The notes under the pieces are model-generated. The model made no database searches. It had not been told where the DNA came from and saw nothing but the letters and a program-made list of their open reading frames with translations. Below, piece by piece: positions 470 to 26,223 of a DNA stretch of 64,000 nt. Position 1 is the first letter of the stretch, and the number at the start of each line of letters is the position of its first letter. The stretch is taken from the NCBI RefSeq assembly GCF_002929535.1, contig NZ_PJJO01000054.1, forward strand, positions 1 to 64,000. The letters are read 5' to 3'. This stretch comes from Cryobacterium sp. Y11 (GTDB lineage Bacteria; Actinomycetota; Actinomycetes; Actinomycetales; Microbacteriaceae). A program made the translations under genes and the position numbers.

Positions 470-3400
470 ATGTTTCGACGCATTGCGCGCCACCATCGCT
501 CGCTCATGAGCATGGGCATTGTCACGTCCGCGACGGTGGCCCTGTCGCTGTTAGCTGTCCTCTACCCGGGCATCACTACCGCCGATGTGCAGCTGAACGA
601 TGGCGGCGTCTGGGTCACCAAACCCACCGCTCTGCTCGTTGGTCATCTCAACTACCAGGCCCAGGTTCTCGATGCCGGGCTGCGCGCCAAAGCCAACGAC
701 TTCGAGATACTGCAGTCCGGCAACATCGTGCTCACCCATGATCGGGCCAACGCGACGCTGAACGTGATCGACCCGGCCAATAAGGTCTTCGGTGCCGATA
801 TTGCTCTGCCACCGGATGCCGCGGTCACCCTCGGAGCCGACACTGTCGCCATATTGGGCCGGTCGACCGGCGCCCTGTTCGCCCTCACCGTGGCAGAGCT
901 CGAGTCTTTCAGCGTCGAAAGCACGGACCCGGCTATCGAACTCGGGGCCGGCGCCGCCGTGACCGTCGGGTCCACCGGCACGGTGCACGCCGTTTCCGCC
1001 GCGGACCGGCAACTCGTCACCGTGGCGCGCAGCACCGGTCCGATGGGTTTCGAGGCCCCCACCCTCACCGAGCTGCCCGCTCTCAACGATTTGGGTGACC
1101 AGCCGGAGCTTTCGATCGCAGCGGTAGGGGACGCATCCGTCGTGCTCGAGAGCACCTCGGGAACGCTGTTCCTGCCGGAAGACCGCACGGTCAAGACCGC
1201 CGCCGGTGCTGCCCTGCAGCAGAGCAGCACCGGCACCGCGACCACCGCCGTGCTCGTAGCCACCCCCGATTCCCTACTGATCCAGCCCCTCGACGGAGGC
1301 GAAGCGACCCGCATTGAGACGGGCGGCGCGGGCAGTCCCATCGCCCCGGTCTTTCTCAACGGATGCGCCTATGCGGCCTGGTCAACGAGCGCGCGCTACC
1401 TGCGGGACTGCCCAGGCAGCATCGACGACGTAGCCCGCGACCTCGAAATCGACACGGCCACACCCCTCACCTTTCGGGTCAACCGCAACGTGGTGGTGCT
1501 CAACGACCTCACCACCGGCCTGGTCTGGCTGGTCGACCAGGACATGGTCGTGATCGACAATTGGAACGACATCACGCCCCCGCCCGACGAGAGCGACGAG
1601 GAGGACGACCAGGACGCGGTCACCGAGTCGGTCGAGAACGTGCTTCCGCAACGCACCGAGGAGAACACCGAACCGGTCGCCGTCGATGACAGCTTTGGCG
1701 TGCGGGCTGGCCGCAGCGTCATCTTGCCGGTGCTCGATAACGACACGGATGCCGACGGCGATATTCTCACGGCGACCATCGTCGGCGACGCCCCGTCCCT
1801 CGGCAGTGTGCAGCCCATCTTCGGTGGTACAGCATTGCAGATTGCCGTGGCCGACGATGCCACCGCGACCACGAGTTTTCGCTACACCGTGAGCGACGGG
1901 CGCGGCGGAACAGCCGAGGCGACGGTCACTCTCACGGTGAGCGAGGTCGGCACGAACAGTCCCCCGGTACAGAAACGCACCAGCAGCTTCGTGGTGGAGC
2001 AGGGCGCCTCGATCACTCACAACGTGCGGCCCGACTGGATCGACCCCGACGGTGACGACCTGTTCCTCCAGGCCGCTACGCCCGCGGACGACGATGCCGT
2101 GCAGTTCACCGCTGATGGCGTGCTCAGCTACGCTGCGGTCGGCCAGCACCTCGGCCGCAAAGACGTTGCGCTCGTCGTGTCTGACGGGGTCGACCCGGCC
2201 GAGGGCAGTGTGCGGGTCGACGTGCGGGCGTCCGGCAGCACCACACCGGTCACCAACCCCGATCATGTGTCGACGACCGTCGGTCAGACCGTGACCGTGT
2301 CGCCGCTGCTGAACGATGCGAGCCCCGGCGGGGTTCCCCTGCGGCTGGCCAAGATCGACGAGGTGCCCGGCGCCACCATCGTGCCCGACTTTGCCACCGG
2401 AACCTTCACCTTCAGCGCCGCCGAGCCGCGCACCTATTACCTGCAGTACCTGGCCACCGACGGCCCGAACACTGTGCTCGGCCTCGTGCGCATCGACGTG
2501 ACGGATGCAGCGGCAAGCGACCTTCCGCCCGTCGCGGTTCGCGACGTTGCCCTGTTGCCGGTCGGGCGCGATGTGCTCGTTGACGTACTCGCCAACGACA
2601 CCGACCCGGCCGGTGGAATTCTCGTGGTGCAGTCGCTGACCATTCCCGACAACCTTGGCATCACGGTGGCGGTGCTGGAACACCAGGTATTACACGTGAT
2701 CGATCAGAGCGGCCTGAATGCACCCGTCACGATCGGATACACCGTCTCGAACGGGTCGCTGAGCGCCGAGGGCGAGGTTTTGGTCGTTCCAGTGCCCGCG
2801 CCGGCGAAGCTGCTGCCGCCGGTCGCGGTGGACGACACCGTGACCGTGCGCGCCGGCGACATCGTGTCAATCCCGGTCTTGGCCAATGATTCTCACCCCA
2901 ACGGCGACACGATGACGCTCGCGCCCGCCCTCGTCGAACCGCTCGTGGACGCGGCCGACGGCGAACTTTTCGTGTCGGAAAACATGCTGCGATTTCAAGC
3001 GGGACCGACCGCGAAGACGGTCTACGCCACCTACGAGGTCGTCGACAGTCTCGGTCAGAAGGACTCCGGCTACGTCACCATTCAGATTCTCGCCCTCGAT
3101 GCCGCGACGAACTCCCCGCCGCGCCCGCAGGACCTCACCGCCCGGGTGCTCTCGGGCAACACCGTGCGCATTCCCATTCCGCTAGGCCAGATCGACCCGG
3201 ACGGCGACTCCGTGCACCTCGTGGGGCAGGGCAGCGCACCCACCAAGGGCCGCATCGTGGAGGTCGGCGACTCCTGGCTAGGCTACGAAGCCTTCGCCGA
3301 CTCTGTCGGTACCGACTCGTTCAGCTACGTGGTGCGTGACCGACTCGGGGCTGAAGCTCAGGCCAGCATTCTCGTCGGCATCGCCCGTCCTGGCTCCACC

Positions 3401-6557: not shown

Positions 6558-7532
6558 ATGACCATGACATCAGAACAAGCAACCTGGTTTGCCGGCACGT
6601 TCGGACGCCTCGTCGACAATGTGGGCCTCGCCGTGCTCGGCAAGAGCCAGGTGATTCGTCTCGTCCTCACGGCGATGCTCGCCGAGGGTCACGTGCTGCT
6701 CGAAGATGCCCCCGGGACCGGTAAGACCTCCCTGGCCAAGGCGCTCGCGGCGACGGTGCAGGGCACGAACAATCGAATCCAGTTCACGCCAGACCTGTTG
6801 CCGAGCGACGTGACCGGCGTCACCATCTACGACCAGCAGAGTCATAAGTTTGAGTTTCACCGTGGCCCCATCTTTGCGTCGATCGTGCTCGCCGACGAGA
6901 TCAACCGGGCCAGCCCGAAAACCCAATCAGCACTGCTCGAGGTGATGGAGGAGAGCCGCATCACGGTCGACGGTATCGGCCACGAGGTGGGCCGACCCTT
7001 CATGGTGATTGCCACGCAGAACCCGATCGAGCAGGCCGGCACCTACCGGCTGCCAGAAGCCCAGCTGGACCGGTTTCTCATCAAGACGTCGATCGGTTAC
7101 CCCGATCTCGCGTCGACCGAGCTGATTCTGGCCGGCGCGGCCAACCGCAATCCGGCCGCCGGTCTCACCGCGATGATCACCACTAGCGCGGTGGCCGACA
7201 TGGCCGACCTCGCGTCGAGCGTGCACACCGACGCGGCCATTTTGCGGTACGTCGCCGAGCTCACCCAGGAGACCCGGCTCGCCGCTGAGACCCGGGTCGG
7301 TGTGTCGGTGCGCGGGGCGCTCTCGATGATTCGAGCGGCGAAGGTCTGGGCGGCCGCCCAGGGCCGCAACTTCGTGCTGCCCGACGACGTGAAAGACCTC
7401 GCAGCGGCGGTCTGGACCCACCGGATCGTGCTTGACCCGGAGGCGGAGTTCTCGGGCATGACCGCGGAAAAAATCATCGGCCGAGTTCTCGCCGACGTGG
7501 CCGCGCCACAATCCAGACAGCCGGCGGCATGA
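6558..7532 (+). CDS. MoxR-family AAA+ ATPase
   Basis: A 324-residue AAA+ chaperone-type ATPase. Walker A is DAPGTGKTSLAKAL (about residues 51-64), Walker B with the sensor region is LADEINRASPKTQSALLEVM (about 110-129), and IATQNPIEQAGTYRLPEAQL carries sensor 1 and the arginine-finger region. Length and motifs are standard for MoxR. Families of this kind act with VWA and DUF58 proteins to assemble or activate complexes. The next gene is DUF58 and overlaps by 4 bases, which is the classic MoxR-DUF58-transglutaminase arrangement. It probably remodels a component of this locus in the cytoplasm. Confidence 0.92.
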   Translation: MTMTSEQATWFAGTFGRLVDNVGLAVLGKSQVIRLVLTAMLAEGHVLLEDAPGTGKTSLAKALAATVQGTNNRIQFTPDLLPSDVTGVTIYDQQSHKFEFHRGPIFASIVLADEINRASPKTQSALLEVMEESRITVDGIGHEVGRPFMVIATQNPIEQAGTYRLPEAQLDRFLIKTSIGYPDLASTELILAGAANRNPAAGLTAMITTSAVADMADLASSVHTDAAILRYVAELTQETRLAAETRVGVSVRGALSMIRAAKVWAAAQGRNFVLPDDVKDLAAAVWTHRIVLDPEAEFSGMTAEKIIGRVLADVAAPQSRQPAA

Positions 7533-8827
7533 GCGCGGCGGCGGGTCAGCAGACACTGGACCGGCTGCATCCGCTTCGCATGGTCTGGCGGGGCGCGGTC
7601 TGGCCGGTCTTGAAACCGCTGTGGCAACGTCTGAGACGCATGCTCGCGGTTGTGACCGGGTTCGGCTGGGCCGTGCTCGGGGCATCCGTTCTGGCTTGGC
7701 TGCTCGGCGAACGATTCGGCTGGCAGGAATTCACGGCGCTCGCGCTCGTGGGCGTCGTGCTGCTCGTGCTGGCGGCGCCGTTCCTGCTCGGGCGCAGCGC
7801 TTACGCGATCACCCTGGGGCTCGCCAATACCCACGTGGTGGTCGGCGAGCGTGCGGTTGGCAGTGTGATCGTGGCCAACCCGTCCACCCGCACCATGCTG
7901 CCGGCGCGCATCGAGCTGCCCGTCGGCGCCGGACTCGCCACGTTCCACCTGCCGCGGCTCGCTCCCGGCGCCGAGCACGACGATCTCTTTACGATTCCCA
8001 CTCAACGCCGTACGGTGCTGGCGGTAGGGCCGGTGCGCTCGGTGCGCGGCGACGCGCTCGGCCTGTTTCGCCGGGTCATCGGGTGGACTCCGGCCGAGGA
8101 TCTCTTCGTGCATCCGCGCACGGTGCACCTCGACGGCTCCAGCTCCGGGTTTCTGCGCGACCTTGAGGGCCTGCCAACGAGCGACCTCAGCAATGACGAC
8201 GTGTCGTTTCACGCCCTGCGCGAGTATGTGCCGGGCGACGACCTGCGCAACGTGCACTGGCGCTCCTCGGCGCGCACCGGAACCATCATGGTGCGCCAGT
8301 TCGACGAAACCAGGCGCTCGCACCTGGCCATTGCGCTCAGCCGCAACCCGCTCGACTATGCGCCCACAACAATGACAGCGGATGCCGCGGCCGTTCCGGT
8401 CGGGATCGACGAGTTCGAACTCGCCGTCTCGGTCTGCGGGTCCCTCGGACTGCAGGCCCTCACCGAGGAGAGGCAGCTGACCGTGCTCGCGCAGGACCAG
8501 ATTCTGCCCACCCGAACCGGCAAGCGGCTACTCGACGGGCTGTCGGCGATTGAACCCGGTGGTTCCCGGGCGGACATCGTGCAGTTGGCGCGGCAGACCG
8601 GGGTCAAGGTGCCGAATGCATCCGTTGTGGTGCTGGTATTTGGCAGCACGGTGGAGCCGGCGCGCATTCGCTCGGCGGCCAGCCACCTGCCCAGCGGGGT
8701 GCGCGTGATCGCGGTGCGCTGCTCGCGTGGGGCGGCCCTGTCGCGGCGAGCAATCGCCGACACGACCGTGCTGACGGTTGGCGCGCTGAGCGATCTGCCC
8801 TTCGGAATGCGTCGGGTGAACGAATGA
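7529..8827 (+). CDS. DUF58 membrane protein (MoxR partner)
   Basis: A 432-residue protein with two hydrophobic segments (about residues 38-85), then a soluble region. The DUF58 signature is clear: FHALREYVPGDDLRNVHWRS near residues 229-248, followed by ARTGTIMVRQFDE. DUF58 proteins have a VWA-like fold and act with MoxR ATPases. The ATG overlaps the moxR stop (ATGA), and its own stop overlaps the next start, so the three genes are translationally coupled. The exact client is unknown. Confidence 0.9.
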   Translation: MSAAAGQQTLDRLHPLRMVWRGAVWPVLKPLWQRLRRMLAVVTGFGWAVLGASVLAWLLGERFGWQEFTALALVGVVLLVLAAPFLLGRSAYAITLGLANTHVVVGERAVGSVIVANPSTRTMLPARIELPVGAGLATFHLPRLAPGAEHDDLFTIPTQRRTVLAVGPVRSVRGDALGLFRRVIGWTPAEDLFVHPRTVHLDGSSSGFLRDLEGLPTSDLSNDDVSFHALREYVPGDDLRNVHWRSSARTGTIMVRQFDETRRSHLAIALSRNPLDYAPTTMTADAAAVPVGIDEFELAVSVCGSLGLQALTEERQLTVLAQDQILPTRTGKRLLDGLSAIEPGGSRADIVQLARQTGVKVPNASVVVLVFGSTVEPARIRSAASHLPSGVRVIAVRCSRGAALSRRAIADTTVLTVGALSDLPFGMRRVNE

Positions 8828-11256
8828 GCGCCGCCGGCCAGCCCGCCATTCGGCCCGCCATTCGCCCGCGGCGCCGCCTGCCCGCCCAGCTCGGCGACGT
8901 GCTCGCGATGGTGCTGCTGCTCGGTCTCGGCGTGCTCGGCTTCGGTCCGGTCTTCGGCGGTACCGACTACCTGCTGGCCGGGTTCGGGGGGCTGCTCCTT
9001 GGCCTGGGAGTTGCCGTGCTCGGTGCCCGTCTGCGTTGGGGCACGCTCCTGGTCGCGGCGACGACCGCACTCACCTATTTCGCCTTCGGCGGTGCGCTCG
9101 CCCTGCTCCCGAGCACGATCGCCGGCGTCGTACCCACCCTCGATACCCTGCGCGAACTGGCCATTGGCGTCGTCTTCTCCTGGAAGCAGCTGCTCACCGC
9201 CCCGGCACCGGTCGCCGGGTTCGAAGCCCTGCTGATCGTTCCCTACCTCGCCACGCTGCTCGCCGCCGTGCTGGCCGGCAGTTTCGCGCTGCGCCTGCGT
9301 CGGCCGGCTTTCGCGCTGCTGCCGGTGGCTGCCCTGTTTGCCGTGTCGATCGGCTTCGGCACGCACGAGACCGTGCTGCCGCTGCTGCGTGGCCTGCTGC
9401 TCGCCGTTGTCGCCATCGCGTGGAGCGCGTGGCGCCTTGCTGAAACCCGAAACGGAACGGACACCAGCGCGGTCAACGCCGCCGCCGCATCCGCTGGCGA
9501 AACCGCCGATCCGGCGAGCGCGCGCCGGCTGCGCAGCCGTCGGGTGGCCACCGGATCCGCTCTGCTGGTCGGTGCGCTGTTGCTCGGGGTCGGAATCGGC
9601 AGCGTCGCCGAGCCCGCTACCGCCCGGCAGGTGCTGCGCGACACCGTGGTGCCGCCGCTCGACCTGCACGCCTATGCCAGCCCGCTCGTTGGCTTTCGCA
9701 AATACGTGCGCGATTTCAAGGACACGACGCTGTTCACAGTCAGCGGGCTGCCCGCCGGAGCCCGCTTGCGTCTAGCCACCCTGGACCGGTTCGACGGCGT
9801 CGTTTACAACGTTTCCGGTGACGGCAGCACCGGCTCCGGCACCTTCGCGCGGGTCGGCACGAGCATCGCCGACCCGCGCGCCGGAACCTCGGCGAACCTC
9901 ACGATCACGATCGAAGCGCTGACCGGCGTGTGGGTGCCCGACGCTGGCTATCTCACCGCGCTCACCGCGACCAGCGCCCGGGCCGCCCAGCTCGCCCCGA
10001 GTCTGCACTACAACCGCACCACCGGGGCGGCCGTTTCGACCCTCGGGTTGCAGTCGGGCGACAGCTACACGGCCACGGTCGTTCTGCCGCCGAGCTATAC
10101 CGACGAGCAGCTGGCTGCCCGACAGGTTGCCACCCTCGCCATGCCAGAGTCAGCGCCGGTTCCCGACATTGTGACGACCGCAGCGGATGCCGCCATCACC
10201 GACGCCGTCACTCCGATCGAACAGGTGCGCGCCATTGAAACGGCCCTGCACACCGGTGGATTCTTCAGCCACGGCCTCGAGGGCGAAACCGTCTCCCGAG
10301 CCGGTCACGGCGCCGAGCGCATCGGCGTGCTGCTCAGCGACGACCAGATGATCGGCGACGACGAGCAGTACGCCGTGGCCATGGCCCTGCAGGTCTCGCA
10401 ACTGGGCATTCCGGCCCGCGTGGTGATGGGCTTTTACCCCGCAGAAACGGATGCCGTAGCCACCGGCGCCCTCGCGATCACCGGCGCCGACCTGCATGCC
10501 TGGGTCGAGGTTGCCTTCGACGGGGTCGGCTGGGTGAGCTTTGACCCGACACCGCCCACCGACCAGGTTCCGCAAGCCGAGCAGCCCAAACCCAAGAGCG
10601 AGCCGCAAGCGCAAGTCTTGCAACCGCCGCTGCCGCCGCTGGCCCCGGTCGAGTTGCCGGCGGACGTGCTCGCCGATGACTCGGCCACCGACCCGGTCAC
10701 CGACCTGTGGTCGACGGTCTGGCTGGTCGCGGGCATCGCTGGCGGGGTATTCGCGCTGCTTCTGGTTCTACTCGGGCCGGGGCTGCTCCTGGCCGTGCTG
10801 CGAAAGCGTCGTCGTCGAGGCCGGGCGCGTGCGCCCAGGCCGGTCGACCGGCTGAGCGGCGGCTGGAGCGAGGTCGTCGACACGGCGACCGACCTGGGGC
10901 TGAACCTGGCGCCCGGCGCGACCCGCCGGGAGGGCTCCCTGGCCTTGGCCGAACGCTACCCGGCCGCTGGCCTGATGCTGCTCGCCGCCCGCGTCGATTC
11001 GGGGGTGTTCGGCCCGGTCGACCCGACCGAGCAGCAGCTCACCGAGTTCTGGACCGAGGTCGACGGCATCGTCGTCAGCCTTAACAACTCGGTGCACGGC
11101 TGGGCCCGGCTGCGCGCCCGGCACTCCGTGCGGTCATTTCTGGCCGGTTCGAGTGGCCGAACACAGAACCGCGCGGGGCCGCTCCAACCGACCTCGCGAA
11201 GTCCCCGATCGCCCCGCCTGACCACCCTCGCCAAAAAGTGGAGACGAACATCATGA
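8824..11256 (+). CDS. Membrane transglutaminase-like protein lacking the catalytic Cys
   Basis: An 810-residue protein. The N-terminal 260 residues hold about six hydrophobic segments. An extracytoplasmic part follows with a transglutaminase-like core at about residues 505-580, then a single membrane segment (about 628-658), a basic stretch KRRRRGRARAP and a cytoplasmic tail. In the core, the segment before LGIPARVVMGFYP reads MIGDDEQYAVAM. The position where transglutaminase-like enzymes carry the nucleophilic Cys is Asp. The His (DLHAWVEV) and Asp (VSFDPTPP) positions are retained. It may therefore be a binding or scaffolding pseudoenzyme. Gene order MoxR-DUF58-transglutaminase supports the family call. 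Confidence 0.85.
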   Translation: MSAAGQPAIRPAIRPRRRLPAQLGDVLAMVLLLGLGVLGFGPVFGGTDYLLAGFGGLLLGLGVAVLGARLRWGTLLVAATTALTYFAFGGALALLPSTIAGVVPTLDTLRELAIGVVFSWKQLLTAPAPVAGFEALLIVPYLATLLAAVLAGSFALRLRRPAFALLPVAALFAVSIGFGTHETVLPLLRGLLLAVVAIAWSAWRLAETRNGTDTSAVNAAAASAGETADPASARRLRSRRVATGSALLVGALLLGVGIGSVAEPATARQVLRDTVVPPLDLHAYASPLVGFRKYVRDFKDTTLFTVSGLPAGARLRLATLDRFDGVVYNVSGDGSTGSGTFARVGTSIADPRAGTSANLTITIEALTGVWVPDAGYLTALTATSARAAQLAPSLHYNRTTGAAVSTLGLQSGDSYTATVVLPPSYTDEQLAARQVATLAMPESAPVPDIVTTAADAAITDAVTPIEQVRAIETALHTGGFFSHGLEGETVSRAGHGAERIGVLLSDDQMIGDDEQYAVAMALQVSQLGIPARVVMGFYPAETDAVATGALAITGADLHAWVEVAFDGVGWVSFDPTPPTDQVPQAEQPKPKSEPQAQVLQPPLPPLAPVELPADVLADDSATDPVTDLWSTVWLVAGIAGGVFALLLVLLGPGLLLAVLRKRRRRGRARAPRPVDRLSGGWSEVVDTATDLGLNLAPGATRREGSLALAERYPAAGLMLLAARVDSGVFGPVDPTEQQLTEFWTEVDGIVVSLNNSVHGWARLRARHSVRSFLAGSSGRTQNRAGPLQPTSRSPRSPRLTTLAKKWRRTS

Positions 11257-16475: not shown

Positions 16476-17263
16476 CCGGCACCGACGCGATGTTCCCCGT
16501 AGAGAGCGACCGACCGCTGACCACGGCGATCGACGGCGTGAGCGTTGAGTACTGCGGTGAGTGGTTTCGCGCCGACCCACAGGCGGTGTTCGGCATCGGT
16601 CGGGAGGCCGAACTGAGCGTCGATGACAACCCGTTTCTGCACCGCCGATTTCTGGAGATCAGCCGGTTCGATGGCCTGTGGTGGCTCGCGAACGTGGGGT
16701 CGCGGCTCGCTGCAACCGTTACCGATGGCAATGGCCGGGTGCAGGCCTGGCTCGCACCGGGGGCTCGCCTGCCGATCGTCTTCGGCCTGCTCACCGTGAT
16801 CTTCACGGCTGGGCCGACCACCTACGAAATCACCGTGCATTCCAGCCAGCCAGCGTTTCGGGGCAATGATCCAGTGGACAGCCGCAACGGGATCACCACC
16901 GTTGGCACCATCTCGTTCACCCCCACCCAAAAACTGCTCATCCTGGCTCTCGCCGAACCGATGCTGGCGCGCGAGGGCAGCGGTCGCAGCGATATCCCCA
17001 CCTCAAGCACGGCGGCGAAGCGGCTGGGCTGGGCCACCACCCGCTTCAATCGCAAACTCGACAACGTCTGCGACAAGCTCGACCGGGCTGGCGTGCAGGG
17101 GTTACGCGGCGGCGTCAGCACCTATGCCACCAACCGGCGGGCCCGCCTGGTGGAGTACGCCATCGCGTCACGCATCGTCACCCGCGTCGACCTGTTGCTA
17201 CTCGACGAGCCGCACCCGGAGCATCCGTTAAACGCGGCCGGCGCACCCGGCCAGGAGGACTGA
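16472..17263 (+). CDS. FHA-like protein with C-terminal winged-helix-like region
   Basis: GTG 16472 is chosen because GTGA overlaps the kinase stop; 263 residues. Residues about 25-115 look like a divergent FHA sandwich (FGIGREAELSVDDNPFLHRR, then LWWLANVGSR). The C-terminal third (LLILALAEPMLAREG through AAKRLGWATTRFNRKLDNVC) looks like a winged helix of the type found after FHA domains in actinobacterial T7SS-like loci. It may read the kinase signal and bind DNA or another protein. The winged-helix call is a pattern judgement. An aggagg ribosome-binding site for the next gene sits at its 3' end. Confidence 0.7.
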   Translation: MTGTDAMFPVESDRPLTTAIDGVSVEYCGEWFRADPQAVFGIGREAELSVDDNPFLHRRFLEISRFDGLWWLANVGSRLAATVTDGNGRVQAWLAPGARLPIVFGLLTVIFTAGPTTYEITVHSSQPAFRGNDPVDSRNGITTVGTISFTPTQKLLILALAEPMLAREGSGRSDIPTSSTAAKRLGWATTRFNRKLDNVCDKLDRAGVQGLRGGVSTYATNRRARLVEYAIASRIVTRVDLLLLDEPHPEHPLNAAGAPGQED

Positions 17264-17264
17264 C

Positions 17265-20200
17265 ATGCGCGTCAAAGTCACGTTGCAGCGTGCCGGTCTG
17301 GCCCCGGTCAACATCGCCATTACAGCGGATGCCACGGCTCTGCTCGGCGATATCGCCTCCGCCCTCTACGCGGCCGACCCGGCCAGGGCCGGGGCTGTGC
17401 TGCCGGAACGACTTACCCTGCAGGTGAGCGGCGAGACCGTCGATGGCTCGGCGCTCACGCTGCGGGTACTCAACCCCGCCGTCGACCTGACCGAGTCTGG
17501 GCTTCGCTCTGGCGCGGTCGTCGAGCTCGTGCAGGCAAGCGACGAATTCGCCCGCCCCGGTGAAAACCGTGGACCGGCAGCTGCGCGCATCACCATTTTG
17601 GCCGGTCCGGATGCCGGCCTGGAGTTCGACGTTCCGTTCGGGGCAAGCACCATCGGCCGAGACTACGGCGCCGAGGTACGCCTCGGCGACCCGCTCGTGT
17701 CGAAACGACACGCTCGCCTCAACGTGGCCGACGCCGTGGAGATTCTCGATCTCGGGTCGGCGAATGGCCTGCTCATGGGCGGCCTCCTCGTCTCCCGCAC
17801 GGTGCTGACCCCCGCCGACGTGGTGTCGCTCGGTGACACCGAGCTGAGCGTTGCGCCGCTGCAGCAGCTCGGTGCCGTACCCACGAGCACACCGGTCGTC
17901 GAGTTCGTGCGCCCTCCGCGGGTGGTCGCGCGGTTCCCCGGCCTCGAGCTGCTCGCGCCGACACCGCCGAAGGCACCGCAGCCGATGCGGTTTCCCTACC
18001 TGTCGATCGTGGCGCCGATCATCATGGGCGTCGTGCTCTACCTGGTGACCAGGAACATCCTGAGCCTGGCTTTTATCGCGCTCAGCCCGCTGCTGGTGAT
18101 CGGCGCCTTCGTTGACGGCAAGGTCACCGCCAAGCGGGTACTCAAACAGCAGATCAAACAGTTCGACGCCGGAATGCGGGCTTCGGAGACCGCCCGCGCG
18201 GCGGCACATTCCGCGGAACGGCTGGTGCGCGCCGCTGAGGCCCCCTCTCTCGCCGAGGTGGTCGATGCGGTGCGGCGCCACGGCGCCCTGCTCTGGACCC
18301 ACCGTCCAGAACACGAGGCCTTTCTCACCGCCCGGCTCGGGCTCGGGCGGGTGCCGTCGCGCTCGACGCTGGCCCTGCCAGGCACGAACGATTCCCTGCC
18401 CGAGTATTGGGAGCGACTTGAGAGCGCGGCCGCGGAGTTCAGCATGATCGACGAGGTACCCGTGCTCGTGGACTGGCGTTCGAGCGGAGCGCTCGGCCTG
18501 GCCGGACCGAGTGCGACCCGTGACGGAATCGCACGCGGCCTCGTCCTGCAGGCCGTCGGCTTACACTCCCCCGCTGAGCTGGTGATTACCGCCTTCACCA
18601 GCCCGGCTTCACGCCTCGGCTGGGATTGGCTGGAGTGGCTGCCGCACACCATGTCAGCGCACAGCCCGCTGACCGGTGAGCACCTCGCCGACAACCCGGG
18701 CAGCGCCCAGGCACTGCTCGCCCGGCTGGAGGCGCTCGTGGAGGCACGCGTGGAGGCATCCGTTTTATTGCGTGGTGCACTGACCGACAAGAATCAGACG
18801 GATGCCCGCCAGCCCGCGCTAATTCCGGCGGTGCTGGTGTTGATCGAAAACGATGCTCCGTTAGACCGAGGCCGAGCCACCCGGCTGGCCGAGCGCGGCG
18901 CCGACGCCAACGTGCACGTGATCTGGTGTGCCGGATCACTCGATCGGCTGCCAGCGGTCTGCCGCACGTTCCTGGTCGTTGCGGCCGAGTCCGTGCCGGG
19001 GGCGTCGAGCGGCCAGGTGCGCTGGGGCGAACAGACCATCCCGGTGCAGACCGAGACCCTCGACCTAGCGACGGCCCAGCGGCTCGCCAGGGCGCTGGCC
19101 CCGGTCGTCGATGTGGGCACGCCAATCAGTGACGATTCCGACCTGCCGAGGGCCGTCTCCTATGCCGTTCTGAGCCGGGTCGACCTGATCGATGAGCCGA
19201 GCGCGGTCATCGACCGGTGGCGGGAGAACAACTCACTCACCGTTCGAGACGGGTCGCCGCCAGTTCGCCGCAAGAAGGAGGGCACCCTGCGGGCGCTCGT
19301 GGGGCACACCGGCACCGAACCGTTTCACCTCGATTTGCGCGCCCAGGGACCGCACGCGCTGGTCGGCGGCACGACCGGGGCCGGCAAGAGCGAGTTCTTG
19401 CAGTCCTGGGTACTCGGCATGGCGGCCGCGCACAGCCCCGACCGGGTTGCCTTTCTGTTCGTTGACTACAAGGGAGGCGCGGCCTTCGCCGACTGCGTCG
19501 GCCTGCCACACACGGTCGGACTCGTCACCGACCTGTCGCCTCACCTGGTGCGGCGAGCGCTCACCTCGCTGCGCGCCGAGCTGCGCTACCGGGAGCACCT
19601 GCTCAATCGCAAGAGCGCAAAAGACCTCGTCTCGCTTGAGAAGACGGGTGACCCCGAGACACCGCCGAGCCTGCTCATCATCGTGGACGAGTTCGCGGCG
19701 CTCGCGACCGAAGTGCCCGAGTTCGTCGACGGCGTCGTGGATGTGGCCCAGCGCGGCCGGTCGCTCGGTCTCCACCTCATTTTGGCAACGCAACGACCAG
19801 CCGGCGTCATCAAGGACAACCTGCGAGCAAACACGAATCTGCGCATTGCCCTGCGCATGGCCGACGCCGAGGATTCCAACGACATTCTCGGCACACCACA
19901 AGCGGCGCACTTCGACCCGTCCATCCCCGGCCGCGGCGCAGCGAAGACCGGGCCGGGGCGCATCGCTGCGTTCCAGACCGGGTATGCCGGCGGCTGGACC
20001 ACGAAAACCCCCACCCGACCACGCATCGACCTGCAGCAGCTGAACTTCGGATCGGGTCTGGCCTGGGAGGTACCGGAGGTCGACGTCGCGGAGGTACGTG
20101 ACCCGGGGCCGACCGATATCGCGCGCATGGTGACGACCATCACGGCCGCCGCCAGCCAGGCCGCCGTGCCGCCGCCGCGCAAGCCGTGGCTCGATGAGCT

Positions 20201-21752
20201 TGCCGCCGTGTATGACTTCATGGAGCAGCCGCATCCACGAACCGATGAGCGACTGCTGCTTGGAGTGATCGACGATCCCGCGACCCAGTCGCAGCCCGCG
20301 ATGTTCTACGAGCCCGATCGCGACGGCAACATGGCCGTCTTCGGCGCCGGGGGCTCCGGCAAAAGCGCCGCCCTGCGCCTGCTCGCCATCGCCGCCGCGG
20401 TCACCTCGAACGGCGGGCCGATTCAGGTCTATGGTCTTGATTTCGGTGCGGGCGGCCTGCGCATGCTCGAGGACCTGCCCCACGTCGGCGCGATCATCAG
20501 CGGTGACGACGGCGAGCGCGTCGTTCGCCTGCTGCGCACCCTGCGCGATCTGGTCGATGACCGCGCCGTGCGGTATGCGGAGGTTCGAGCGGGCACAATC
20601 GGTGAGTACCGCAAGCTGGCGAACCGGCCAGCCGAGCCGCGCATCCTCTTGCTCGTCGACGGGATAGGGGCATTTCGAGAAGCCTACGAATTCGCCTCCA
20701 CGTCGCAGTGGTTCACCGTGTTTGCCCAGATCGCCGCGGATGGCCGCCAGCTCGGCGTGCACGTCGTGATGACCGGGGACCGGCCGAACGCCATCCCCAG
20801 TTCGATCAGCTCCACCGTGCAGAAGCGACTCGTACTGCGGCAAGCCACCGAAGATGACTACATGCTTCTGGGAGCGCCGAAAGACGTGCTGAGCGTCACG
20901 AGCCCTCCCGGTCGGGGCATCATCGACGGCAACGAGGTGCAGCTCGCTGTGCTCGGGGCGAGCTCGAACCTCGCGGTGCAGTCGCGGGAGGTTCAGCGCC
21001 TGGCTGCGAGCATGCGTCGCCAGTCTCCGCTGGAGGCGCCACGCATTGGGCGGCTCCCCGAACACGTTTCGCTGCTCTTACTGCCCGAAACGGATGCTCA
21101 GGGCCGGGCCGCCATCGGACTGGCCGACGATACCCTGGCCGCGATCGGGGTCGAGCAGCGGGGAACGTTCATCATCTCGGGGCCGCCCGGCAGCGGTCGC
21201 ACCACGGCGCTCGCGACGCTCGTGGCAGCTCTCGGGCGGTCACCGCAGCACCCGCAGATTGCCCTGTTTGCGCCACGACGAACAGCGTTGAGCGGTGCGG
21301 CTGCAGGGCGGCTCGGCACCGACGGCTCCGACGGTTTCGTTCTCGTCGCGGACACCATCGACGCGGTCGTGACCGCAGCGTCCCGGCTCACGGAACGCAT
21401 TGAGGCCGGTTCGTTCACGGTGGGGCAACTCGCGGTGGTACTCGAAGGGGTGACCGATTTCACGGGGACCGACGCGGAGCATCCGCTCGCCCAGCTGGTG
21501 AAGGCGGCGGCGCGGGCCGAGCTGTTTGTCGTCGGGGAAGCCGAGAGCTCCACCTGGTCCCAGGCCTACACGCTCGCTGGTCCGTTCAAATCGGGCCGGA
21601 GGGGCTTGCTGCTCGTGCCCGGTGAGATGGACGGCGACATGCTGCTCGGCACCCCGCTCGGGCGCCTGAAGCGCAGCGAATTTCCTCCTGGCCGGGGCTT
21701 TCTCATCGTCAACGGCCACGCAATGCGCCTGCAGGCTGCGATGGTGAATTGA
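17265..21752 (+). CDS. FtsK/SpoIIIE-type T7SS ATPase (EccC/EssC-like) with N-terminal FHA domain
   Basis: A 1495-residue protein with AGGAGG 7 bases before ATG. Domains: a small beta-grasp/ubiquitin-like segment (1-92; ends DLTESGLRSGAVVELV); FHA (about 106-200; STIGRDYGAEVRL, SKRHARL, DLGSANGLLMGG); two membrane helices (about 244-283); then three tandem P-loop ATPase domains. Walker A of domain 1 is GTTGAGKS (702-709) with Walker B LLIIVDEFAAL; domain 2 has GAGGSGKS (1027-1034); domain 3 has GPPGSGRTT (1306-1314), where the P-loop Lys is Arg. FHA plus two helices plus three ATPases is the layout of firmicute EssC. It should be the motor for the WXG100 proteins encoded downstream. Confidence 0.93.
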   Translation: MRVKVTLQRAGLAPVNIAITADATALLGDIASALYAADPARAGAVLPERLTLQVSGETVDGSALTLRVLNPAVDLTESGLRSGAVVELVQASDEFARPGENRGPAAARITILAGPDAGLEFDVPFGASTIGRDYGAEVRLGDPLVSKRHARLNVADAVEILDLGSANGLLMGGLLVSRTVLTPADVVSLGDTELSVAPLQQLGAVPTSTPVVEFVRPPRVVARFPGLELLAPTPPKAPQPMRFPYLSIVAPIIMGVVLYLVTRNILSLAFIALSPLLVIGAFVDGKVTAKRVLKQQIKQFDAGMRASETARAAAHSAERLVRAAEAPSLAEVVDAVRRHGALLWTHRPEHEAFLTARLGLGRVPSRSTLALPGTNDSLPEYWERLESAAAEFSMIDEVPVLVDWRSSGALGLAGPSATRDGIARGLVLQAVGLHSPAELVITAFTSPASRLGWDWLEWLPHTMSAHSPLTGEHLADNPGSAQALLARLEALVEARVEASVLLRGALTDKNQTDARQPALIPAVLVLIENDAPLDRGRATRLAERGADANVHVIWCAGSLDRLPAVCRTFLVVAAESVPGASSGQVRWGEQTIPVQTETLDLATAQRLARALAPVVDVGTPISDDSDLPRAVSYAVLSRVDLIDEPSAVIDRWRENNSLTVRDGSPPVRRKKEGTLRALVGHTGTEPFHLDLRAQGPHALVGGTTGAGKSEFLQSWVLGMAAAHSPDRVAFLFVDYKGGAAFADCVGLPHTVGLVTDLSPHLVRRALTSLRAELRYREHLLNRKSAKDLVSLEKTGDPETPPSLLIIVDEFAALATEVPEFVDGVVDVAQRGRSLGLHLILATQRPAGVIKDNLRANTNLRIALRMADAEDSNDILGTPQAAHFDPSIPGRGAAKTGPGRIAAFQTGYAGGWTTKTPTRPRIDLQQLNFGSGLAWEVPEVDVAEVRDPGPTDIARMVTTITAAASQAAVPPPRKPWLDELAAVYDFMEQPHPRTDERLLLGVIDDPATQSQPAMFYEPDRDGNMAVFGAGGSGKSAALRLLAIAAAVTSNGGPIQVYGLDFGAGGLRMLEDLPHVGAIISGDDGERVVRLLRTLRDLVDDRAVRYAEVRAGTIGEYRKLANRPAEPRILLLVDGIGAFREAYEFASTSQWFTVFAQIAADGRQLGVHVVMTGDRPNAIPSSISSTVQKRLVLRQATEDDYMLLGAPKDVLSVTSPPGRGIIDGNEVQLAVLGASSNLAVQSREVQRLAASMRRQSPLEAPRIGRLPEHVSLLLLPETDAQGRAAIGLADDTLAAIGVEQRGTFIISGPPGSGRTTALATLVAALGRSPQHPQIALFAPRRTALSGAAAGRLGTDGSDGFVLVADTIDAVVTAASRLTERIEAGSFTVGQLAVVLEGVTDFTGTDAEHPLAQLVKAAARAELFVVGEAESSTWSQAYTLAGPFKSGRRGLLLVPGEMDGDMLLGTPLGRLKRSEFPPGRGFLIVNGHAMRLQAAMVN

Positions 21753-21883: not shown

Positions 21884-22150
21884 ATGGCCGTATGGGGTCT
21901 CGATGTAGAACAGGTTCGTACACTCAGCAGCCAGCTTTCGCAGAAAGCCAGCGATATTGAAGGGGTGCTGAGCACCCTCACCAACACCTTGGGCAACACG
22001 GAATGGACCGGCCCGGATGCTTCAGGATTCCGCAGTGACTGGAATGGCCAGCATTCTGCTGCTCTGCGCCAGGTCATCAATGCTCTGAACGAGGCCTCGC
22101 AGAAGGCCTCGCAGAATGCTCAGGCGCAGGAACAGACCTCGAACGCCTAA
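21884..22150 (+). CDS. WXG100-family secreted protein (ESAT-6-like)
   Basis: An 88-residue, helix-rich protein with the WXG100 hairpin motif as EWTGPDASGFRSDW near residues 39-53. It fits the usual 80-100 residue size, has no Cys and no signal peptide. GAAGGA upstream supports the ATG. WXG100 proteins form helical-hairpin dimers and are exported by EccC/EssC motors. Placement directly after the ATPase gene makes it the probable core substrate. I see no YxxxD/E export signal at the C-terminus (tail AQAQEQTSNA). Confidence 0.92.
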   Translation: MAVWGLDVEQVRTLSSQLSQKASDIEGVLSTLTNTLGNTEWTGPDASGFRSDWNGQHSAALRQVINALNEASQKASQNAQAQEQTSNA

Positions 22151-22235: not shown

Positions 22236-23159
22236 ATGGCGGGTAAGTATGGCGCCGACGTCGAGCAACTTCGACAGTTGGCACACAGCATGAGCACGGC
22301 GAGCGACCGGCTCGAACGAGACCGGCTCACCGTCGGACACCAGATCAAAATCAGCGCGTGGGTCGGCCCCTTCGCAGCAACCTTCAAGGCCCAGTGGGAG
22401 TCCGAGCACAGCCTGCACGTCGCATCCGTTGCGCGGGTGCTGGAGGAGAACGCGACTCAGCTTCGCAAGAACGCCGACGCGCAGGAGGCCGCCAGCGCCG
22501 CCGACGGCTCAACTTTTGGCCGGATCGTCGAGAGCGCCGAGAGCGCCGATGTCGGAAGGATCATCGCGGACCTCATAGGCGGCGGCAGACCCGACGAGGC
22601 TATCAAGAAGCTCCTGGATCTCCTCGGTGGATCGTTGACTCTGCTTGATATAGCGACCATCGCACGCGAGATGTCGAACCTACCCACCACAACGCTCTTG
22701 CAAAAGTTCTTGGGCCCGATCGCTCTTGTGCTGGAGGGCAACGAAATTGTTGGCCTCGTCAAGTCCGGCGATGTCGGAGGAGCCCTCGGTCACCTGGGCT
22801 CCGGAGTCGCCTCCCTGACCAGTTATGTTATGGCTTTCACGCCTGGCGCGGCCCATGCTGCGGGAACTGCCGGGCTCACGGCCGGGCTGCAGAGACTGTC
22901 TCCCCTTGTCTTGGGCATCTCAGCTCTGGTGACATTCGTGGACATGACGATTCCCAGAACGCAAGCGGAGCAGAACGAAACGTACGAGATGGGAGCGCGA
23001 CACCTCTTCGGGAGAAACGTCGACGTTGACAACCTGTCTCAAGAGCAGGCGTCTCAAATGAGTCGACGATATGAAGGCGTGTGGGGAGCGATGACAATGA
23101 TCAGCGACAAGATGGACACTACTGCCGAGGAACTTTTCTCGTCGAACCGGGGTAAGTGA
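22236..23159 (+). CDS. WXG100-like protein with long hydrophobic C-terminal extension
   Basis: A 307-residue protein. Residues 1-95 form a WXG100-like helical hairpin with the turn SAWVGPFAATFKAQW and a second helix ending near NADAQEAASAADG. The remainder is largely hydrophobic or amphipathic (LLDLLGGSLTLLDIATIA; LGPIALVLEGNEIVGLV; GLQRLSPLVLGISALVTFVD) and ends in a polar tail. AGAAGGG precedes the ATG. The long-WXG plan is reminiscent of T7SS effectors, but I recognise no toxin catalytic motif. Its stop overlaps the next gene (TGATG), suggesting an effector/partner pair. Confidence 0.75.
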   Translation: MAGKYGADVEQLRQLAHSMSTASDRLERDRLTVGHQIKISAWVGPFAATFKAQWESEHSLHVASVARVLEENATQLRKNADAQEAASAADGSTFGRIVESAESADVGRIIADLIGGGRPDEAIKKLLDLLGGSLTLLDIATIAREMSNLPTTTLLQKFLGPIALVLEGNEIVGLVKSGDVGGALGHLGSGVASLTSYVMAFTPGAAHAAGTAGLTAGLQRLSPLVLGISALVTFVDMTIPRTQAEQNETYEMGARHLFGRNVDVDNLSQEQASQMSRRYEGVWGAMTMISDKMDTTAEELFSSNRGK

Positions 23160-23755: not shown

Positions 23756-23832
23756 CAAGGCTTGCGCTTCGAGCCGTAACGAAAGCTCGCAGCGCAGATG
23801 GTCGGATTCAATGAGCGGTGTGACAGAAATGA

Positions 23833-26223
23833 GTGGGCATGCATTGGAGCATCTACGACACGATGTTGATGGTGACCGGCATCAGCTCGGCCGCGATCGC
23901 GTTCGTGCCGGGAATCACGAACAAAGCCCGCGCCATCTCTGTTGCCGTGGGAACGCTGCTGGTGATCGCTGCTCTGATCACCGGCAGTCTGAGCAGTTTC
24001 ACCTATCCGCAGCAGGTTCTGCTCGGGCCGCTTCTCCCTGCCGTGGTCGCGATCCGGCTGTGGTGGGCCGCCCGTAAGCCGCCAGCGGCCGGGCTCGACC
24101 CGAATGCCACCTCCGAGCAATTGTTCCAGCTGGCGCAACAGCAGCCGGCCCTGCGGCCGGCGATTGCGGCGCACGCCAACGCCTACCCCGCACTGATCGA
24201 TTGGCTTGGGGCGCAGGGCGAACCTGCAACGGATGCCGCACTCGCCGCGCGCGGGTCAACCCCCGACGATGTCCCAGTCACGCTCGCCACCGAGGCACCC
24301 GAGGCACCCGACAATCGGCTCGACACGCCGACCGACCCCAGCGACCCGCACGCCCTCGCGACGGACCCGGCCACCACGGCGGCGACCCTCGCCGACCTGG
24401 CCTATCGCTACCCCGCACTGCGGGGTGTCATCGCCGCCAACCCGGCCGCCTACCCGGAATTGCGAGACTGGATCGCGGCCGCGGGCGAGAGGGCACCGGA
24501 TTCACAACCCGGGGAGCCACAACTCGACCACTCGCCAGGTTTGCTCCCTTCCCTGGCCGTTCTCGTCGTTTGTCTGGTGCTGGCAGCCGTCGGAATCGTC
24601 GGCACGATCGCTGAGGCGAACGATGGCGGGACCTCTGACTCGAGTGCGGCCGACACCAGCGGCACGGCATACGACGAGGAAATCCTGAGTGAGACCGAGG
24701 CGAGCGGTGTGGGCTCGCCGCTCGCGGCATCCGCTCAACCGGTAATAGCCACGCCGCGCAACGTACCCACCGTGCTGGTACTCGATGCCTCCGGGTCGAT
24801 GGTGCGCGATGTTTCCACCGGCGGCACCCGAATGGAGGCCGCGCGTGCCGCCACGACGACGTTCGTGAACGGGCTCAGTGACGGATCCAGGCTCGGGCTC
24901 ACCGTGTTCGGCACCTCGACCGGCAACGCGGTCGAAGACCAAGCGGCCGGATGCCGGGACGTCACGACGATCCTGCCCGTCGGCCCGGTCGATAAAACCG
25001 AACTCAGTGCTGCCGTGGCCGCGATCGTCGAGAGCGGCTACACGCCCATCGGCCTCGCATTGCAGCACGCTGCCGATCAGTTGCCGGCTGCGGAGGAAGC
25101 CACGATCGTTCTGGTCTCGGACGGCATTGACACCTGCACCCCGCCGCCATCGTGCGAGATCGCTGCGACGCTCAAGCAGGCCCATCCCGACTTGACGATC
25201 CACACCATCGGCTTTCTCGTTGATGCCGACGAGGAGGCCCAAGCCCAGCTGGCCTGCATCGCGGCGGCGAGTGGCGGGGAGTTCGTCGAGGCGGGCAATG
25301 CCGCGCAACTGGCGGCCCGGCTGCGCATTGCCAGCGACCCGGACTCTCTCGGCGACACCGTCACCCCCTCGGGCTTCAACGCCCTGCGCATCGGCATGAC
25401 GTTCGATCAGGCGCGCGCCGCCGAGCCGAGCCTCACCGTGACGCGCACCGCCATCGACTTCGTATATGTGGAGTGTTTCTACGCCACCATGCGCTTTCGG
25501 GACGGTGTTCTCTACGACATCTCCCCCACCGCGTCGGCACCCACGGCCGAAGGGCTGTCTATCGGCGACGACCTGACCCGCGCCGTGGAACTCTACGGCG
25601 AACCGACCACTGCAGAGACCGGTGAGCTCGGTACCTTCCAGGTCTTCCCGGCCACGCCCGGCGGAGCCAACGGATACCAGGTGTATTACGACGGCTACGA
25701 CCGCGTGGTGCAGATTGTGCTTTGCAGCTGTGGTCCGGGTGCCAATATAACAACGGATGCTTCCAGCTGGCAGATCGACTTCGATGGCATCGGTCCGATC
25801 AAACTCGGCGACTCGTTCGAGGAGGCCTTCGCTGTGGCGCCACAGAAGGCCAGCCAGGATCCCGAGTACTGCACCTGGCACGCCGAATTGGATGTCGCTG
25901 TCCCTAACGGCTCCTTGGAAATTGTGAGCGGCTATGCCGACCGGAGGCAATCGATCCTCGCCGTGTCAGTGTCCGACTGGAACGCCAACCCGGCCGGGTT
26001 CCCGCGAACGTGGGCGGGGGCCGGGATCGGTGCGACGTACGACGAGGTGCGAGCGGCCCACCCCGATGTCCGAGTGACGCCAGGCCCAGCACTGGACTAC
26101 GACTTATGGGTCATCACCGGGCAGAACGGAAACTCGATTATTTTCGAAGCGGACCAGACCGACCGCGTGGTGGCGATCACGGTCAACACGGTGCCCTCCA
26201 GCCTGTTCGAGGTCTGCGCGTAA
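23833..26223 (+). CDS. Membrane VWA-domain protein with variant leucine-rich repeats
   Basis: Up to 796 residues; start GTG 23833 or ATG 23839, neither with a good ribosome-binding site. Two N-terminal membrane segments are followed by two similar repeat units (QLAQQQPALRPAIAAHANAY and DLAYRYPALRGVIAANPAAY) of the variant leucine-rich-repeat type, a membrane helix (about 235-257) and a VWA domain with MIDAS motif VLVLDASGSM. The C-terminal 280 residues hold three units with a shared pattern (RIGMTFDQARAAEPSL, KLGDSFEEAFAVAPQ, GIGATYDEVRAAHPDV). VWA proteins often act with MoxR ATPases, so it may belong to the machine upstream. Confidence 0.83.
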   Translation: MGMHWSIYDTMLMVTGISSAAIAFVPGITNKARAISVAVGTLLVIAALITGSLSSFTYPQQVLLGPLLPAVVAIRLWWAARKPPAAGLDPNATSEQLFQLAQQQPALRPAIAAHANAYPALIDWLGAQGEPATDAALAARGSTPDDVPVTLATEAPEAPDNRLDTPTDPSDPHALATDPATTAATLADLAYRYPALRGVIAANPAAYPELRDWIAAAGERAPDSQPGEPQLDHSPGLLPSLAVLVVCLVLAAVGIVGTIAEANDGGTSDSSAADTSGTAYDEEILSETEASGVGSPLAASAQPVIATPRNVPTVLVLDASGSMVRDVSTGGTRMEAARAATTTFVNGLSDGSRLGLTVFGTSTGNAVEDQAAGCRDVTTILPVGPVDKTELSAAVAAIVESGYTPIGLALQHAADQLPAAEEATIVLVSDGIDTCTPPPSCEIAATLKQAHPDLTIHTIGFLVDADEEAQAQLACIAAASGGEFVEAGNAAQLAARLRIASDPDSLGDTVTPSGFNALRIGMTFDQARAAEPSLTVTRTAIDFVYVECFYATMRFRDGVLYDISPTASAPTAEGLSIGDDLTRAVELYGEPTTAETGELGTFQVFPATPGGANGYQVYYDGYDRVVQIVLCSCGPGANITTDASSWQIDFDGIGPIKLGDSFEEAFAVAPQKASQDPEYCTWHAELDVAVPNGSLEIVSGYADRRQSILAVSVSDWNANPAGFPRTWAGAGIGATYDEVRAAHPDVRVTPGPALDYDLWVITGQNGNSIIFEADQTDRVVAITVNTVPSSLFEVCA

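What the first reader, a model, noticed from the sequence alone, without database searches (positions are those of the whole stretch)
470..26223. Non-canonical type VII secretion-like locus without EccB/EccD/EccE/mycosin
An EccC/EssC-like ATPase with FHA, two membrane helices and three P-loop domains is followed by a WXG100 gene and a long WXG100-like gene, yet no gene resembles EccB, EccD, EccE or MycP. Instead the operon supplies MoxR, DUF58, a transglutaminase-like membrane protein, RDD-FHA, FHA, a kinase and a phosphatase. The machine may use different membrane parts from mycobacterial ESX, closer to firmicute EssC, and may serve a giant Ig/Fn3 surface protein.
Basis: partly seen in the sequence, partly recalled or inferred. 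Interest (0 to 1): 0.75.

Follow-up and report, generated by a model that had tools for sequence, protein, structure and literature searches.

The report
Self-contained actinobacterial type VII secretion ATPase
This actinobacterium carries a likely protein-export operon whose motor protein appears to have a usually separate machine part, a ubiquitin-like piece, built into its own front end, which may explain how it does without the usual partner proteins.

Summary
A tight operon (470-21752) ends in an EssC/EccC-type ATPase, followed by a WXG100 gene and a WXG100-headed gene. EccB, EccD/YukD and EssB were not found anywhere in the 99% complete genome; a mycosin-like protease exists, but elsewhere. 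Evidence: an AlphaFold model (pLDDT 82-96 over residues 1-90), profile matches to EccD and YukD (scores 31.1 and 30.7; best of 232 controls 17.6), and sub-cut-off hits of Pfam's YukD model at the same place in three other large proteins. Such ATPases occur across the Actinomycetota and form one clade in my trees, apart from T7SSa, T7SSb and the Coriobacteriia/Bifidobacterium ATPases that I take for the published T7SSd. Around 16 distant members, only WXG100-like genes are widely kept (14 of 16), so the ATPase may carry most of the machine. In the window's branch it is joined to the kinase/phosphatase/FHA/MoxR/DUF58/Ig-Fn3 set known as the PFNA operon of bifidobacteria. I call it a new variant of type VII secretion. 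Export itself is unproven.

The parts
470..6541 (+). 2023-aa Ig/Fn3 surface protein with N-terminal signal or anchor helix (residues 12-30); TsdI/FN3-like candidate for a wall-spanning part
   Evidence: Big_9 x10 and fn3 x3 stretches; one hydrophobic helix; matches upstream of MoxR in L042 and L053
6558..7532 (+). MoxR AAA+ ATPase
   Evidence: AAA_3 2e-62, AAA_lid_2 6.4e-21
7529..8827 (+). DUF58 protein with two N-terminal helices
   Evidence: PF01882 4.9e-13
8824..11256 (+). membrane protein with TgpA_N and transglutaminase fold; catalytic Cys replaced by Asp, a pseudo-transglutaminase
   Evidence: PF01841 1.4e-14, PF11992 5.4e-12; alignment to 6g49; no Cys at this place in any of the 15 aligned sequences that cover it, window included
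11253..12512 (+). RDD membrane domain plus C-terminal FHA (start 11238, 11253 or 11286)
   Evidence: PF06271 2.7e-11, PF00498 3.2e-5; start codons
12509..13441 (+). PP2C phosphatase, DGMGG and SDGL motifs present
   Evidence: PF13672 1.6e-10, NF033484 7.6e-56
13441..14877 (+). FHA protein with one helix
   Evidence: PF00498 6.3e-8
14874..16475 (+). Ser/Thr kinase with one membrane helix (399-417), active-site motifs present; the outer part looks like an Fn3 domain by eye
   Evidence: PF00069 4.6e-37; HRDIKPAN and DFG
16463..17263 (+). conserved gene directly before the ATPase: FHA-like N-terminus and a conserved C-terminal domain (both by eye)
   Evidence: no Pfam match; homologues in 11 loci, 45-61% identity in the alignment
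17265..21752 (+). EssC/EccC-type ATPase: ubiquitin-like domain 1-92, FHA about 105-200, two membrane helices, three FtsK/SpoIIIE-type P-loop domains
17265..17540 (+). fused ubiquitin-like (YukD/EccD-type) domain, residues 1-92
   Evidence: AlphaFold model; hhalign to EccD and YukD with controls; PDB sequence search; PF08817 hits in equivalent proteins
21884..22150 (+). WXG100 protein, 88 aa, W-T-G turn
22236..23159 (+). 307-aa protein with N-terminal WXG100-like module and own C-terminal part; candidate substrate
   Evidence: related N-termini in longer proteins of L045 and L051
23156..23755 (+). 199-aa protein overlapping the former by 4 bases; candidate partner, chaperone or immunity protein
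   Evidence: no Pfam match; no match in ORFs of the 80 loci at E up to 1
23833..26223 (+). LRV_2 plus VWA membrane protein; whether it is part of the system is uncertain
   Evidence: PF25591 3.4e-36, PF13519 8.4e-11; match in one of the 80 loci, L054

Best explanation
The operon encodes an actinobacterial type VII secretion system of its own kind. Its motor carries a built-in ubiquitin-like domain in the place of separate EsaB/YukD or the EccD head, and works without EccB/EccD or EssB. Shown from sequence: the domain order (ubiquitin-like, FHA, two helices, three P-loop domains), its recurrence in relatives, its separate clade, and the linked genes. Inferred: (1) six ATPase copies form the membrane pore, as EccC does; (2) the fused ubiquitin-like domain sits on the first ATPase domain, as the EccD head does in ESX-5; (3) the WXG100 protein (21884) and the WXG100-headed protein (22236) are exported; (4) the membrane kinase phosphorylates threonines on partner proteins that the FHA pocket of the ATPase binds, so assembly or opening is switched by phosphorylation and reset by the PP2C phosphatase; (5) MoxR, DUF58, the pseudo-transglutaminase and the Ig/Fn3 protein build or sense a wall-spanning surface structure that serves, or is served by, the export machine.
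For: Ubiquitin-like domain: AlphaFold with 27 sequences, strands 2-7, 15-20, helix 27-37, strands 50-55, 66-68, 84-90, pLDDT block means 82-96 over residues 1-90, the S1-S2-H-S3-S4-S5 order that PMC1949818 gives for YukD; hhalign score 31.1 to EccD heads and 30.7 to YukD over 72 and 76 columns against at most 17.6 in 232 controls; profile search of PDB sequences: 14 of 21 rows are ubiquitin, ISG15 or ubiquilin, the best a redesigned ubiquitin at 5e-4, the rest at 0.06 or more; PF08817 in a scan of 149 genomes hits the domain in three ORFs of 1491-1686 aa (E 5.5e-5 to 0.0077, all under the cut-off), all three found by my domain profile, two matching the window ATPase over most of its length and the third with FtsK_SpoIIIE and FHA matches. 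Clade: 34 rows one side of a branch (99*), tree built without the N-terminus. No separate partner: YukD/EccD in 0 of 8 and EccB in 0 of the same 8 genomes that hold a close ATPase. Minimal set: in 16 distant loci chosen from the 80, the ATPase is in 16 and a family of WXG100-like proteins in 14; no other family is in more than 7; 4 of 4 members of that family scanned pass the WXG100 cut-off. FHA pocket: R, S, H and N kept in 22 of 27 rows, window included. Kinase and PP2C motifs present; three or more of MoxR, DUF58, transglutaminase, PP2C and kinase beside the ATPase in 12 of 16 close loci; operon genes overlap or lie within 16 bases.
Against: No secretion data exist. The window WXG100 and the long WXG100-like protein score under curated cut-offs. 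Structure search of the model showed only FHA folds in its 50 listed rows, so the ubiquitin-like half was not tested by fold comparison. Only 2 of 27 N-termini match YukD in a single-sequence Pfam scan, best E 0.066, and the window is not one shown to. The top PDB sequence hit of the domain profile by E-value is a repetitive, unrelated protein, EtpA. The FHA pocket is lost in the five Kineosporia and Streptomyces rows, so phospho-control cannot be general. Two rows counted as ubiquitin-FHA in the tree (L086, L179) are not found by the domain profile (E above 0.8). L119, and the short ATPases L009, L107 and L114, sit inside the same side of the first tree without a detected domain. Some genomes with a close ATPase also hold EccB or EccD, and one genome of the window's own genus has an EccD-like protein. 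A mycosin homologue exists in the genome. EccE, EsaA and EssA were not searched.
Confidence: 0.66

Rival explanations
1. It is the published T7SSd (Garrett 2024) in further genera: FHA ATPase, WXG100, membrane kinase and large Ig-like protein, with nothing new beyond host range.
For: Same part list for four of five parts; the paper says T7SSd has no ubiquitin-like gene, which a fused domain would hide.
Against: ATPases of Rubneribacter, of an unnamed phylum member (L146) and of Bifidobacterium genomes, which I take as T7SSd, form another group beside the Bacillota ATPases (6 rows, 100*). Those scanned have one Pfam FHA after about 100 residues that match no Pfam model (L111, L146, L180) and are not found by the ubiquitin-like profile. 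Near two of them lies a clear small YukD-like gene and near a third a weak one. No TsdH-like gene seen in the window. The paper's own accessions were not available, so this identification is mine.
Confidence: 0.2
2. It is an ordinary ESX-4-like T7SSa whose EccB/EccD/mycosin are elsewhere in the genome.
For: A mycosin-like protease at C48:178168 scores 251.6 bits.
Against: No EccB or YukD/EccD in a 99% complete genome; the same searches find both in Nocardioides, Kineosporia and Actinomadura. The protease lies among genes that look like housekeeping genes by eye, and G230 and G246 hold the ATPase with only weak protease matches (66 and 46 bits).
Confidence: 0.04
3. The operon is mainly a PFNA-type envelope-sensing and adhesin operon; the ATPase and WXG100 genes are neighbours with a separate job.
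For: All five core PFNA genes are present, and the PFNA gene list of the paper names no type VII ATPase; no PFNA genes were matched around the ATPases of Streptomyces-type loci, nor around the short ATPases of L117 and L118.
Against: The ATPase follows P0009 after 1 base, and P0009 overlaps the kinase gene; linkage holds in 12 of 16 close loci from at least five families.
Confidence: 0.1

Closest known systems
T7SSd / T7SSe (Garrett, Higginson, Palmer 2024, PMC11217815)
   Same: FHA-bearing ATPase with phosphothreonine pocket, WXG100, membrane kinase, large Ig-like protein; not reported with EccB/D/E
   Different: Ubiquitin-like domain fused to the ATPase here; separate ATPase group in my tree; no TsdH/TsdK seen; extra MoxR, DUF58, pseudo-transglutaminase, RDD-FHA
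PFNA operon of bifidobacteria (PMC8430577)
   Same: Kinase, Fn3 protein, MoxR, DUF58, transglutaminase-like membrane protein, plus PP2C and FHA
   Different: Kinase at the far end and followed by a type VII ATPase and WXG100 genes; the transglutaminase-like protein here has no catalytic cysteine
T7SSb (EssC of Bacillota)
   Same: EssC is the best single full-length HMM match; FHA before the membrane helices; WXG100 gene beside the ATPase
   Different: Ubiquitin-like domain plus one FHA, where EssC is described with two FHA; no EssB, no separate YukD
T7SSa / ESX
   Same: Same ATPase superfamily; ESX also has a ubiquitin-like domain fused to a core part (EccD)
   Different: Fusion is to the ATPase, not to a multi-helix membrane protein; no EccB/EccD

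Membership tests
Type VII secretion (broad: EccC/EssC ATPase plus WXG100) | Membrane FtsK-type ATPase with several P-loop domains | tested here: met
Type VII secretion (broad: EccC/EssC ATPase plus WXG100) | WXG100 gene beside the ATPase | tested here: met
   21884-22150, W-x-G present, scores just under the cut-offs
Type VII secretion (broad: EccC/EssC ATPase plus WXG100) | ATPase-dependent export of WXG100 protein | not testable with these tools
   needs culture supernatant of wild type and mutant
T7SSa (ESX) | EccB | tested here: not met
   none in G000; 4 of 14 genomes positive in the same search
T7SSa (ESX) | EccD with YukD-like head | tested here: not met
   PF08817 none in G000
T7SSa (ESX) | Mycosin in the locus | tested here: not met
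   the best match in G000 is a sub-cut-off S8 protease on another contig, C48
T7SSa (ESX) | EccE | not tested
   not searched
T7SSb | EssB/YukC | tested here: not met
   none in G000; found in 4 of 9 genomes of the same search, all four Bacillota
T7SSb | EssC with two N-terminal FHA domains | tested here: not met
   the first domain is ubiquitin-like; one FHA found
T7SSb | EsaA and EssA | not tested
   not searched
T7SSd (Garrett 2024) | Kinase with membrane helix (TsdD) | tested here: met
T7SSd (Garrett 2024) | Large Ig-like protein with signal peptide and C-terminal helix (TsdI) | tested here: inconclusive
   Ig/Fn3 repeats and N-terminal helix present; the C-terminal helix is not seen
T7SSd (Garrett 2024) | ATPase in the TsdC clade | tested here: inconclusive
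T7SSd (Garrett 2024) | No ubiquitin-like part | tested here: not met
   fused domain
T7SSd (Garrett 2024) | TsdH, short single-helix protein | tested here: inconclusive
   none among the 14 operon genes read; no TsdH profile was used
PFNA operon | kinase, Fn3, MoxR, DUF58, transglutaminase-like genes together | tested here: met

The most novel reading that the evidence does not exclude
A previously unnamed type VII subtype spread over the Actinomycetota in which one polypeptide (ubiquitin-like domain, FHA, membrane helices, ATPases) plus a WXG100-like protein is the whole core machine, with the ubiquitin-like part that other systems keep on EsaB or EccD built into the motor; in one branch this motor has been placed under a kinase/phosphatase switch and joined to the PFNA surface module.
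Probability: 0.5. Interest if true: 0.78.

Novelty: new variant of a known kind. Interest (0 to 1): 0.62.

Why it matters
Nearly all type VII systems described so far have a ubiquitin-like part, its precise role is unclear, and T7SSd was reported to lack one (PMC11217815). A motor with the part built in allows a direct test: delete or swap one domain of one protein. It would also give the PFNA operon of bifidobacteria, studied so far as a host-sensing operon, a possible tie to protein export.

Tried and rejected
Single-sequence AlphaFold of the N-terminus gave pLDDT 33.8 and was not used as evidence. Foldseek and VIA-align against PDB with the good model listed only FHA folds in the 50 rows shown each, so they neither support nor oppose the ubiquitin-like half. 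Pfam scan of 10 downstream ORFs from relatives found one LpqN-like protein, weak WXG100 matches and some coiled-coil noise, but no toxin domain. P0013 as an EspG-like chaperone was considered by eye and dropped: no Pfam match and no homologue among the loci. P0009 as EspM was considered and dropped: no match to that model in the NCBIfam scan. A second set at C59 was considered as the true secretion partner: its ATPase is in two frames and no N-terminal part was seen. I first described the Coriobacteriia/Bifidobacterium ATPases as FHA-FHA; the check found only one FHA in each of the three scanned, so I withdrew that.

Rows dropped or labelled by hand before counts: 16 rows were left out of the second tree for size, among them L119, L009, L107 and L114, which lie on the actinobacterial side without a detected ubiquitin-like domain; L086 and L179 were counted as ubiquitin-like by eye; L108 and L195 were labelled T7SSa by their place in the tree, and the six T7SSd rows by me (L183 among them, whose reading frame starts late). 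In one search the 12 of 16 counts loci with at least three of MoxR, DUF58, transglutaminase, PP2C and kinase; L041, L046 and L050 fail and L042 has two plus the Ig/Fn3 gene; L047, L055 and L058 were left out because their contigs end close by, and the other 61 of the 80 loci are more distant. In one search I gave 16 of the 80 loci; its 14-locus WXG100-like family was joined by single linkage and holds both short and long proteins, of which four were scanned. Gene names such as TadE, CpaB, type IV pilin, HisS, enolase and DUF501 for neighbours are recalled by eye, from no call; that L146 is from Coriobacteriia is a guess.

Papers: PMC11217815 outline, parts 1-4 and the Discussion; PMC8430577, PMC1779556, PMC3482391 and PMC1949818 by passages; all others only as search listings. 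That a ubiquitin-like domain fused to the ATPase is not in print rests in an open-licence library only; [quoted passage not shown]

Full report
The observation. The window starts at the end of contig C55 of a 4.03-Mb, 61-contig, 99% complete genome. From 470 to 21752 there are ten genes on one strand, each overlapping the next or within 16 bases of it: Ig/Fn3 protein, MoxR, DUF58, TgpA/transglutaminase-like membrane protein, RDD-FHA, PP2C, FHA, Ser/Thr kinase, an unnamed protein (P0009), and the ATPase. After 131 bases come a WXG100 gene, a 307-aa WXG100-headed gene, a 199-aa gene and a VWA gene. Pfam and NCBIfam support these names. The ATPase scores 519 bits with the full-length EssC model and 342 and 315 with the two half-length EccC models, all under cut-off, so HMM scores alone do not say which it is closer to.

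Absent parts. EccB was not found in the genome, nor YukD/EccD, nor EssB. The same searches found EccB in 4 of 14 genomes, YukD/EccD in 14 of 24 and EssB in 4 of 9. Eight genomes that hold a close ATPase (G000, G148, G117, G230, G002 by kinship; Cellulosimicrobium, Pseudarthrobacter and Salinibacterium by title) have neither EccB nor YukD/EccD in those searches. Three others with a close ATPase (G045, G092, G248) have EccD-like proteins, and two of these have EccB, so there a T7SSa lives beside it. One genome of the window's own genus (G195) has an EccD-like protein; in the order, 32 of 149 genomes have a PF08817 match at E up to 0.01. A mycosin-like protease at C48:178168 (251.6 bits, cut-off 278.75) lies among genes that look like housekeeping genes by eye; G230 and G246 have only weak matches. 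EccE, EsaA and EssA were not searched.

The built-in ubiquitin-like domain. Residues 1-92 lie before the FHA domain and match no Pfam model in the window protein. AlphaFold on 27 N-termini (window plus named relatives) gave a confident beta-beta-alpha-beta-beta-beta order. Profile comparison of 26 such domains with nine EccD heads gave score 31.1, P 1.2e-5, and with eight YukD-like sequences 30.7, P 1.1e-5, each at about 81% probability; EccD against YukD gave 43.7. Controls: 200 column shuffles, at most 16.1; 32 windows from the rest of the ATPase, at most 17.6; two reversed profiles, at most 9.9. A profile search of PDB sequences gave 21 rows, 14 of them ubiquitin, ISG15 or ubiquilin; only a redesigned ubiquitin (5e-4) is significant among these, and the top row is a repetitive protein, EtpA. 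In the scan of 149 genomes of the order, Pfam's YukD model hit three ORFs of 1491-1686 aa at E 5.5e-5, 0.0077 and 0.0077, all under its cut-off. My domain profile finds all three (1.9e-9 or better); two match the window ATPase over most of its length and the third has FtsK_SpoIIIE and FHA matches. The domain profile finds 32 of 55 ATPases at E below 1e-3, eight of them not used to build it, and none of the EccC, Bacillota or Rubneribacter rows. From a phylum search it finds 13 of 30 ATPases, the window itself among them, nine of them from outside the window's class.

Clade. A tree of the ATPase core without the N-terminus put all 34 ubiquitin-FHA rows on one side of a branch (99*), with T7SSa, T7SSb and a Rubneribacter/Bifidobacterium group on the other. 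Nearest to the window are Cellulosimicrobium and Pseudarthrobacter. I take that last group as the published T7SSd; this is my identification, since the paper's accessions were not at hand. Its members that I scanned have one Pfam FHA and no ubiquitin-like match. Small YukD-like genes lie near three of these ATPases: L145 (3.4e-25, but used to build the profile), L176 (2.3e-13) and L203 (weak, 0.006 by my profile and 0.062 by Pfam), although the paper reports none for T7SSd.

What stays together. I took 16 of the 80 loci as distant members (Streptomyces, Actinomadura, Nonomuraea, Kineosporia, some Microbacterium and others). The only family kept in most of them besides the ATPase is one of WXG100-like proteins, in 14 of 16; the next is in 7. 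Four of four members scanned pass the WXG100 cut-off. This supports a machine whose core is the ATPase itself. In the window's own branch the MoxR/DUF58/transglutaminase/PP2C/kinase set is kept (three or more of five) in 12 of 16 close loci, and P0009 homologues lie in 11 loci, in nine of them just before the ATPase.

Control by phosphorylation. The FHA pocket residues (R, S, H, N) are kept in 22 of 27 rows, including the window, and lost in the five Kineosporia and Streptomyces rows. Kinase and phosphatase motifs are present. A phospho-switch is therefore likely in this branch but cannot be general.

The pseudo-transglutaminase. Aligned to a solved protein-glutamine gamma-glutamyltransferase (6g49), the place of its cysteine holds Asp; none of the 15 aligned sequences covering the place, the window included, has Cys there. 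That this cysteine is the catalytic one is recalled knowledge. The protein is thus unlikely to be an active transglutaminase or cysteine protease, as the bifidobacterial one has been called.

Cargo. The 307-aa protein shares its first ~90 residues with longer proteins in L045 and L051 without a match beyond that stretch, as in polymorphic secreted toxins; no toxin domain was recognised.

Verdict. A real, conserved, non-canonical type VII locus; the new point is the ubiquitin-like domain fused to the ATPase. Export is unproven.

Noticed in passing
G000:C59, L008:4686-10635 and L138: A second type VII-like set in the same genome: a WXG100 gene that passes the Pfam cut-off (45.3 bits), a 441-aa protein, a kinase like P0008, and an ATPase in two frames with no N-terminal part seen; genes that look like a type IV pilus operon (by eye) lie next to it.
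   Followed up: partly
G000:C49, L009:9316-12321: A short EccC-like ATPase (1001 aa) without detected ubiquitin-like domain; relatives in Cryobacterium (L107) and a Microbacteriaceae MAG (L114, where it follows MoxR, DUF58, TGase and RDD-FHA matches).
   Followed up: partly
window 8824-11256: The transglutaminase-like protein lacks the catalytic cysteine, as do all 15 aligned sequences (window included) that cover the site.
   Followed up: yes
L145:4485-4802, L176:14902-15153, L203:1062-1358: YukD-like small genes near the Rubneribacter, unnamed and Bifidobacterium ATPases that I take for T7SSd, where the literature reports none; the Bifidobacterium one is weak.
   Followed up: partly
genus of G262 (Bifidobacterium): 82 of 91 genomes have a match to the window ATPase; most of the matches listed are in ORFs of about 600-740 aa and cover a single ATPase domain, of unknown job.
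   Followed up: no
L067, L070, L071, L075, L077, L081, L085: Genes that look like Tad pilus parts (by eye) lie near the ubiquitin-FHA ATPase, recalling the T7SSg/h link to Tad pili.
   Followed up: no
window 16463-17263: Conserved protein with FHA-like start and an unnamed C-terminal domain, no Pfam match; homologues in 11 loci, just before the ATPase in nine.
   Followed up: partly
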